DNA of 37,159 nucleotides. Origin: Acidimicrobiia bacterium. GTDB lineage: Bacteria > Actinomycetota > Acidimicrobiia > Spongiisociales > UBA11373. Positions 11,780 through 13,199 of the stretch are shown piece by piece. The position numbers were made by a program, and so were the translations under genes. The notes below the pieces were generated by a model that saw only the letters and a program-made list of their open reading frames with translations, was not told the DNA's origin and did no database searches. The first letter of the stretch is position 1, and every line of letters begins with the position of its first letter. Location: assembly GCA_016932695.1 (NCBI GenBank), contig JAFGCH010000094.1:1-37159 (forward strand), written 5' to 3'.

Positions 11780-11916
11780 ACAGGCCCGTTCCTGCCCCTC
11801 TCTATGAAGGAGGGTGGTGAGTCAAGTTGTGGGGGTGGGTTCTCATCTCTCTATTGCCGTCTGTGGGTGGATTAGGTGGTTGGAGGTTGCCGGTGGCCCA
11901 TCTCAGGGGTGGGTCG

Positions 11917-12951
11917 TCAGGCGACCAGAGGGGAGGCGGGGCTTGCCGGCTGGAAGGGTTGTTGGCGGGTGAGCATCCACCAGATGGCGGTGGCGAGTTG
12001 GCGGGCGCAGTCGACGCGGGCGACAGCGGGTCCACGCTGGCGGCCGAGCCGGCGGGTGGTGGTCTGATACCGCTGGGAGTAGGCGGGGTGTTGGGAGGCC
12101 CAGGTGACCGCTTCGATGAGGGCCCAGCGGAGCCAGCGGGGCCCGTGTTTGGCTAAGGGTCCTCGCCAGTCGGAGTCTCCGGACTGGTGGACTCGGGGAC
12201 ACAGTCCGGTGTAGCCGACGAGATGCTTGGGGTTGGGGAAGCGGCCGATGTCGCCGATCTCCGCGGCGATGGTGAACCCGAGGATGGGTCCGATCCCGGG
12301 GGCGGTCTGCAGCAGCCTGACGGTCGGGTCCGCCTGGCCGGCGTGACGGAGTTGCCGGTCACAGTCGGCGATCTGCTCGTCGAGATGGTCGATGGTCTCC
12401 AACGCAGCCTGGGTGGTGTCCCGCCACGCCGGGGGCAGCTCCAAACGGGCCAGGAGGTTCCGGCCGCCCACCCCGAACAGGTCCGAGACCGGCACCCCGA
12501 TCCCCCAGCTGATCAAAGACGAGTGGATCCGGTTCTTCAAGGCGGTGCGGTGTTTGACCAGATGCAGACGGAAACGGGCCAGCTCCCGCATCCCCCGCAC
12601 CTCCGGCGGCGGCAGCCACACCGCTGGGATCAGATCCCGGAAAGACAAGTCGGCCAACACCCGGGCGTCGATCCGATCAGTCTTCGCCGTCAAAGGAGCC
12701 AGCGCTTTTACCCGGGCAGCGTCGGCGACCTCGACCACCCAGCCGCAACCCTCCAAAACGTCATGCACGAACCGGGCGCCCGTCATCGACTCCACCACCC
12801 CCCGCACCTGACTCCCCTCGAACCGGGCTGCCAGTCCCCGCAGCCCGTCCGCATCAGGCGGCGCCGGCAGCCGGCAACGCAGAACCCCGTCCGGGTCCAA
12901 CACGCACACATCCAAACGCTTCCTCGACAAGTCCAGACCAACATGCACCAT
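11917..12951 (-). CDS. IS110-family DEDD transposase
   Basis: MVHVGLDLSRKRLDVCVLD, AKTDRIDARVLADL, C-terminal LLQTAPGIGPILGFTIAAEIGDIGRFPNPKHLVGYTGLCPRVHQSG...LAKHGPRWLRWALIEA; ORF intact. Confidence 0.93.
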   Translation of the reverse strand: MVHVGLDLSRKRLDVCVLDPDGVLRCRLPAPPDADGLRGLAARFEGSQVRGVVESMTGARFVHDVLEGCGWVVEVADAARVKALAPLTAKTDRIDARVLADLSFRDLIPAVWLPPPEVRGMRELARFRLHLVKHRTALKNRIHSSLISWGIGVPVSDLFGVGGRNLLARLELPPAWRDTTQAALETIDHLDEQIADCDRQLRHAGQADPTVRLLQTAPGIGPILGFTIAAEIGDIGRFPNPKHLVGYTGLCPRVHQSGDSDWRGPLAKHGPRWLRWALIEAVTWASQHPAYSQRYQTTTRRLGRQRGPAVARVDCARQLATAIWWMLTRQQPFQPASPASPLVA

Positions 12952-13011
12952 GAGGGCCTCCTTGGGAGCCTCGAGATGGCAACCCGAAGGCTGCCACCCG
13001 AGGAGGCCCTC
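12952..13011 (-). promoter_or_regulatory. Shine-Dalgarno-sequestering hairpin in the transposase leader
   Basis: 11-bp perfect stem GAGGGCCTCCT (12952-12962)/AGGAGGCCCTC (13001-13011) with nested TGGCA/TGCCA stem; the SD AAGGAGG lies in the stem and the stem ends at the ATG (12949-12951). Confidence 0.6.
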
Positions 13012-13117
13012 CTTCATCACATTCAGGGGGAGGTGGACCGGCCCGCAGGGCCGGGACGAAGGGGGTCCGTCCCAAAGACATAACGGCTCGGGCTGCGTTG
13101 CCTCTGGGCACACGGGT

Positions 13118-13149
13118 TCGAGGCGGGTGAAGCACCCCCCTCGCCTCGA
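13118..13149. other. Nested hairpin in IS/regX3 intergenic region
   Basis: TCGAGGCG/CGCCTCGA enclosing GGTG-AAG-CACC. Confidence 0.45.
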
Positions 13150-13159
13150 GGACTCGGCA

Positions 13160-13178
13160 CTCCCCCCTGCGGGGGGAG
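13160..13178 (-). terminator. Hairpin downstream of the response regulator
   Basis: CTCCCCCC-TGC-GGGGGGAG, 8-bp stem, just after the minus-strand stop at 13200. Confidence 0.5.
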
Positions 13179-13199
13179 AACAGTGCGCCCCGCCCCGCC

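What the first reader, a model, noticed from the sequence alone, without database searches (positions are those of the whole stretch)
12949..13011. IS110 transposase Shine-Dalgarno buried in a perfect hairpin ending at the start codon
On the mRNA strand, GAGGGCCTCCT pairs with AGGAGGCCCTC (11 bp, no mismatch), and the latter contains the SD AAGGAGG and directly precedes ATG. A second short stem (TGGCA/TGCCA) lies inside. This geometry would repress translation from transcripts that include the upstream arm, analogous to the anti-read-through hairpins known for IS10/IS50-type elements; I am not aware of it as a standard IS110 feature.
Basis: partly seen in the sequence, partly recalled or inferred. 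Interest (0 to 1): 0.7.

Follow-up and report, generated by a model that had tools for sequence, protein, structure and literature searches.

The report
Transposase leader hairpin hides ribosome site
A mobile DNA element carries, just before its transposase gene, an RNA hairpin that covers the ribosome-binding site; equivalent hairpins with different sequences recur in many related elements, so this is probably a common brake on transposase production rather than an oddity of one copy.

Summary
In detail: an 11-bp perfect stem (13011-13001 / 12962-12952, minus strand) buries the Shine-Dalgarno (SD) sequence AAGGAGG and ends at the ATG of a 344-aa IS110-family transposase. The element (11801-13024) belongs to the IS1111 group: 11-bp subterminal inverted repeats, short left end (71 nt), longer right end (114 nt) carrying a bridge/seekRNA-like target match. 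The hairpin is conserved in about 25 relatives (41-65% aa identity), and the reading frame across it is not, so the leader is RNA, not coding. Beyond that clade, IS1111-type elements of Actinobacteria and Proteobacteria, including ISEc11, often carry different but mutually complementary arms at the same place. Own arms pair better than swapped arms (z = -10.6; ordinary genes z = -1.4). IS110-type elements with long transposases mostly lack it. The best reading is a general translational brake. ISPpu9 (IS110 family) is a tested precedent for a buried ribosome site. What seems new is the dedicated, recurrent leader hairpin of IS1111-type elements. Function is inferred; no expression was measured.

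The parts
11801..13024 (-). IS1111-group insertion sequence, bounded by the core dinucleotide GA (13024-13023 at the left end, 11802-11801 at the right end)
   Evidence: Ends mapped by analogy with six near-identical Paraconexibacter copies in different sites and by the shared end sequences of 14 relatives
13007..13017 (-). Left subterminal inverted repeat ATGAAGGAGGG; overlaps the foot of the 5' arm by 5 nt
   Evidence: Exact inverted repeat of 11814-11804; conserved at the left end of relatives
11804..11814 (-). Right subterminal inverted repeat CCCTCCTTCAT
   Evidence: relatives
13001..13011 (-). 5' arm of the SD-burying stem, GAGGGCCTCCT
   Evidence: GGCCTCC conserved in most clade members
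12977..12996 (-). Inner stem-loop TGGCAGCC-TTCG-GGTTGCCA
   Evidence: inner stems of differing sequence at the same place in relatives
12952..12962 (-). 3' arm AGGAGGCCCTC, containing most of the SD and ending at the start codon
12957..12963 (-). Shine-Dalgarno sequence AAGGAGG
   Evidence: Sequence
11917..12951 (-). IS110-family DEDD recombinase/transposase, 344 aa, intact
   Evidence: Pfam PF01548 and PF02371, NCBIfam NF033542 at 247.9 bits against cut-off 140, IS621 and ISCro4 chains in the PDB
11803..11916 (-). Right-end non-coding region, probable bridge RNA/seekRNA; CCCCTGAGA at 11909-11901 matches the left half plus core of the insertion site
   Evidence: Own-target match beats swapped targets across 14 elements, P = 0.0002
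11820..11825 (-). -35-like TTGACT; with TAGA (11804-11801) joined to AT (13022-13021) it forms the circle-junction promoter
   Evidence: TTGAC[A/T]-N15/16-TAGAAT-like arrangement in most relatives; not tested experimentally here
13025..13037 (-). Left flank of the target site, ending CCTCCCCCT; rejoined target reads CCTCCCCCT-GA-GAGGGGCAGG, a palindrome
   Evidence: Sequence

Best explanation
The hairpin is a dedicated translational brake in the leader of an IS1111-group element. The transposase mRNA folds so that the sequence just inside the left subterminal repeat pairs with the SD and the few bases up to the start codon, making ribosome entry rare. It acts on transcripts entering from outside and on those started at the promoter formed when the element circularises, so it limits recombinase per transcript generally. 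Shown by computation: the stem, its conservation, and complementary arms in unrelated lineages. Inferred: that the RNA forms in cells, that it lowers translation, and that low transposase output is the selected effect.
For: Stem exact and stable. Outer stem kept in about 25 distinct relatives at 41-65% aa identity. Frame between the leader ATG and the tnp start not conserved (remainders 0, 1 and 2, internal stops). SD-opening cost 8-16 kcal/mol in most hairpin members against 0.8-6.2 in a hairpin-less sister group. In an actinobacterial sample, the SD region pairs upstream beyond shuffles at P<0.05 in 14 of 27 elements with 330-375-aa transposases, 1 of 23 with 376-480 aa, 10 of 157 ordinary genes. 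Arms from 58 representatives pair better with their own partner than when swapped, z = -10.6, against -1.4 for ordinary genes and -2.1 for IS110 long-transposase elements. Proteobacterial examples, including ISEc11 (P = 0.003) and a weaker IS5075 (P = 0.066). Precedent: weakening the RBS-burying leader of ISPpu9 raised a lacZ fusion 26-fold (PMC8450116).
Against: No expression data. Inside the window's clade the outer stem is almost invariant, so it shows conservation, not covariation; two members carry a mismatch. A sister group at 59-62% identity has a longer left end (about 195 nt by alignment) and no clear SD hairpin. About half of the IS1111-type sample is not significant, and IS5708, ISShdy1 and a haloarchaeal element show nothing. 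Removing the 5' arm in silico lowers the SD-opening cost only from 8.0 to about 5 kcal/mol, because the GC-rich leader refolds.
Confidence: 0.68

Rival explanations
1. Anti-read-through device as in IS10/IS50: only transcripts entering from outside contain both arms, while the native transcript lacks the 5' arm and is translated.
For: Short element with flanking genes, so incoming transcription is plausible. In many relatives the outermost bases (ATGAAG with CTTCAT) would pair fully only in read-through transcripts.
Against: Predicted junction start (13016-13012) lies upstream of the 5' arm (13011), with no room for a separate promoter inside the leader. Opening costs are equal for the two transcript kinds.
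Confidence: 0.1
2. A regulated switch, not a fixed brake: an antisense RNA (as Asr9 in ISPpu9), the recombinase itself or the right-end RNA opens or stabilises the hairpin.
For: ISPpu9 precedent (PMC8450116). IS110-family recombinases bind their own structured RNA tightly (PMC11208160). The leader has a conserved inner stem-loop.
Against: No binding or antisense transcript was tested; I saw no GGAGGCC-like opener in the window's right-end RNA (sequence).
Confidence: 0.14
3. By-product: a purine-rich SD plus a conserved DNA end site (subterminal repeat and neighbours) happen to be complementary; the conserved GGCCTCC is a DNA site.
For: The 5' arm overlaps the subterminal repeat by 5 nt; GC-rich shuffles often pair the SD too (22 of 200).
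Against: Arms differ between lineages yet match each other and end at or next to the start codon. GGCCTCC is not part of the right-end repeat, and its distance from the left repeat varies (L027, L065). ISEc11 mini-elements move with only 50 bp of left end (PMC11187229), so the distal arm is not needed as DNA there.
Confidence: 0.08

Closest known systems
ISPpu9 (IS110 family, Pseudomonas putida), PMC8450116
   Same: Transposase mRNA leader buries the ribosome site; low translation; weakening the structure raised a lacZ fusion 26-fold
   Different: 244-nt leader with an antisense RNA (Asr9) proposed to open it; here the left end is only 71 nt, the hairpin is dedicated, and no antisense RNA is known
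IS200 (IS200/IS605 family), second stem-loop occluding the ribosome site, as cited in PMC3196728
   Same: SD hidden by a stem-loop close to the transposase start
   Different: Unrelated HUH transposase; IS200 also has a separate transcription-terminating stem-loop; no bridge RNA
IS10/IS50 anti-read-through hairpins (from general knowledge)
   Same: A hairpin near the end of the element hides the transposase start signals
   Different: They discriminate incoming from native transcripts; here both kinds are predicted to contain the hairpin
ISEc11 (IS1111 group, E. coli), PMC11187229
   Same: Same group; leader in database copies (L232, L241-L248) forms GTGGAG.CTC.CAG / CTGGAG.CTCCAC next to the ATG
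   Different: Arm sequences unrelated to the window's; my searches of that paper for hairpin, stem-loop and Shine found nothing, so it apparently does not discuss this leader

Membership tests
IS110 family, IS1111 group | DEDD recombinase domain plus C-terminal Transposase_20 domain | tested here: met
   PF01548 66.7 bits, PF02371 84.9 bits, both over the cut-off
IS110 family, IS1111 group | Subterminal inverted repeats of 7-17 bp (PMC11208160) | tested here: met
   11-bp exact repeat 13017-13007 / 11814-11804
IS110 family, IS1111 group | Longer non-coding region downstream of tnp | tested here: met
   114 nt right against 71 nt left; relatives mostly 115-381 against 74-81
IS110 family, IS1111 group | Transposase of 330-350 aa with GL-P----S(T)G motif (PMC11187229) | tested here: met
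   344 aa, GLCPRVHQSG
IS110 family, IS1111 group | Bridge/seekRNA in the right end with target guides | tested here: inconclusive
   Own-target match beats swapped targets, P = 0.0002; right-half and donor guides and folding not resolved
IS110 family, IS1111 group | Circular intermediate with junction promoter | not testable with these tools
   Promoter-like sequence predicted at the joined ends; no circle observed
Transposase mRNAs with a buried ribosome site (ISPpu9/IS200 kind) | SD paired in a stable leader structure | tested here: met
   P(SD paired) 0.94; fold z = -4.6
Transposase mRNAs with a buried ribosome site (ISPpu9/IS200 kind) | Weakening the structure raises translation | not testable with these tools
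   Needs reporter fusions
Anti-read-through hairpins (IS10/IS50 kind) | Native transcript lacks one arm | tested here: not met
   Prediction only: junction start at about 13016-13012 lies upstream of the 5' arm; equal SD opening cost in both transcripts

The most novel reading that the evidence does not exclude
An SD-burying leader hairpin is an ancestral, group-wide control of IS1111-type RNA-guided recombinases, kept by covariation while its sequence turns over. It is tied to the circle-junction promoter, whose start lies at the foot of the hairpin, and may be a feedback site opened or closed by the recombinase or its guide RNA.
Probability: 0.3. Interest if true: 0.7.

Novelty: new variant of a known kind. 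Interest (0 to 1): 0.5.

Why it matters
Bridge/seekRNA-guided recombinases are being developed as genome-engineering tools, but how their natural expression is held down is little studied. If right, many IS1111-type elements share a simple, mutable switch at the recombinase start codon. It predicts which leader to disrupt to raise expression of native elements and makes their copy-number control testable in a laboratory E. coli element (ISEc11). It also separates the two groups: IS1111-type elements tend to have a dedicated hairpin, whereas IS110-type elements use the left end for the guide RNA.

Tried and rejected
Coding extension of tnp through the leader: rejected, the frame is not conserved. 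Rfam: no match in the window. Covariation inside the window's clade: none for the outer stem because it is nearly invariant; MAFFT misregisters the inner stem, so I claim no counted covariation there. First SD-opening test used 75 nt upstream and missed 5' arms lying further out; the 160-nt window was chosen after seeing that, so it was not fixed in advance. Viral-contig searches gave no relatives. The protein-only search of genome contigs found none; a four-sequence alignment found the clade. ISEc11 reference record CP053751 not held, so ISEc11-annotated copies were used. L239 proved to lie on a fish-pathogen virulence plasmid and was not used.

Full report
What is there. On the minus strand the leader of an intact 344-aa IS110-family transposase (11917-12951) contains GAGGGCCTCCT (13011-13001) and AGGAGGCCCTC (12962-12952), perfectly complementary over 11 bp, the second arm holding most of the SD AAGGAGG and touching the ATG. 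An inner 8-bp stem with a UUCG loop lies between them. The 66-nt leader folds at -42.7 kcal/mol, z = -4.6. A perfect 11-nt complement of the SD arm arises in 0.085% of shuffled leaders, although the SD-opening cost alone is matched by 22 of 200 shuffles.

Which element. Six near-identical Paraconexibacter copies in different sites fix the ends of a relative, and 14 relatives share the pattern. The left end is core GA, about 5 nt, then subterminal repeat ATGAAGG...; the right end is the inverse repeat, then A (completing ATA) and the core GA. In the window the exact 11-bp repeat is 13017-13007 / 11814-11804. The left non-coding end is 71 nt and the right 114 nt. With a 344-aa protein and the motif GLCPRVHQSG this meets the published description of the IS1111 group (PMC11187229, PMC11208160). 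The site it entered, CCTCCCCCT-GA-GAGGGGCAGG, is palindromic. The right end carries CCCCTGAGA, and across 14 elements the right end matches its own target better than other targets (P = 0.0002), as expected of a bridge RNA there.

Conservation. Relatives at 41-65% aa identity keep the outer stem GGGCCTCC / GGAGGCCC next to the start codon and an inner stem of varying sequence. Distance and frame between the conserved leader ATG and the tnp start vary, with stops, so the leader is not translated as an extension. Inside this clade the outer stem is almost invariant and gives no covariation. Some members differ: L064 replaces an outer G-C by A-U, and L121 has GTCCTCC / GGAGGAC (sequences). Five relatives at 59-62% identity (L053, L109, L110, L112, L118) have a longer left end, about 195 nt by alignment, and a more open SD.

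Generality. I tested whether the 18 nt before the start codon pair with the region 24-160 nt upstream better than dinucleotide shuffles. In an actinobacterial sample of the family, 14 of 27 elements with 330-375-aa transposases reached P<0.05 (Fisher 1e-12), against 1 of 23 with longer transposases and 10 of 157 ordinary SD-bearing genes. The arms are lineage-specific, for example GGCCGGCTCC / GGAGCCGGCC, GCTGCAGCACC / GGTGCTGCAGC, and GGTCACTCTCC / GGAGAGTGACC. In a swap test over 58 representatives, own arms paired better than swapped arms by 3.7 kcal/mol (z = -10.6, none of 5000 permutations). IS110 elements with long transposases gave z = -2.1 and ordinary genes z = -1.4. Plasmid-borne proteobacterial elements show the same in several cases, including copies annotated ISEc11, and weakly IS5075 and IS4321. 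IS5708, ISShdy1, the haloarchaeal element and ISEc21 (IS110 type) do not. Caveats: start codons were chosen by rule, the 58 representatives were separated by a crude k-mer filter and include a few members outside the IS1111 length class, and relatedness is only partly controlled.

Mechanism. Joining the ends creates TTGACT-N15-TAGAAT in the window, with similar sequences in most relatives. Such junction promoters are known for both groups and active in some cases (PMC11187229). The predicted start, 13016-13012, is just upstream of the 5' arm, so junction transcripts and read-through transcripts both contain the hairpin, with the same computed SD-opening cost (8.0 and 8.2 kcal/mol). That the brake works in cells is inferred. 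The nearest tested precedent is ISPpu9, where weakening the RBS-burying leader raised expression 26-fold and an antisense RNA is proposed to open it. IS200 is a cited precedent in another family.

Novelty. SD burial in transposase leaders is a known kind. I found no description of it as a recurrent feature of IS1111-type left ends in the open-access library, which lacks most subscription papers and preprints. I therefore rate it a new variant of a known kind, interest 0.5.

Noticed in passing
window 13134-13179: A GC-rich dispersed repeat (TTCTCCCCCCGCAGGGGGGAGTGCCGAGTCCTCGAGGCGAGGGGGGT, minus strand) beside the element; three further copies in the same genome (L002, L003, L004), one directly after a tRNA-like sequence; REP-like.
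   Followed up: partly
window 11780-11802 joined to 13023-13037: The rejoined insertion site is a palindrome (CCCCT-GA-GAGGGG) just downstream of a peroxiredoxin-like gene, possibly its transcription terminator, now split by the element.
   Followed up: partly
L055-L059, L066 (Paraconexibacter antarcticus): Near-identical copies all sit at CTCTGAGAGC-type sites, and the right-end RNA contains TCTCTGAGA, so the target guide has changed together with the target between this element and the window's.
   Followed up: partly
L053, L109, L110, L112, L118 left ends: Sister elements with a left end of about 195 nt that contains a conserved block (AGGCGCGCGCGG...CCGCGCGGCCG) of unknown role and no SD-burying hairpin.
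   Followed up: no
L232:604-674 (ISEc11 left end): A 71-bp fragment of the ISEc11 left end, including the 5' arm but not tnp, occurs alone in a number of E. coli genomes; remnants or small mobile derivatives.
   Followed up: no
L059 (Paraconexibacter): One copy carries an internal duplication of about 400 bp of the 3' half of tnp.
   Followed up: no
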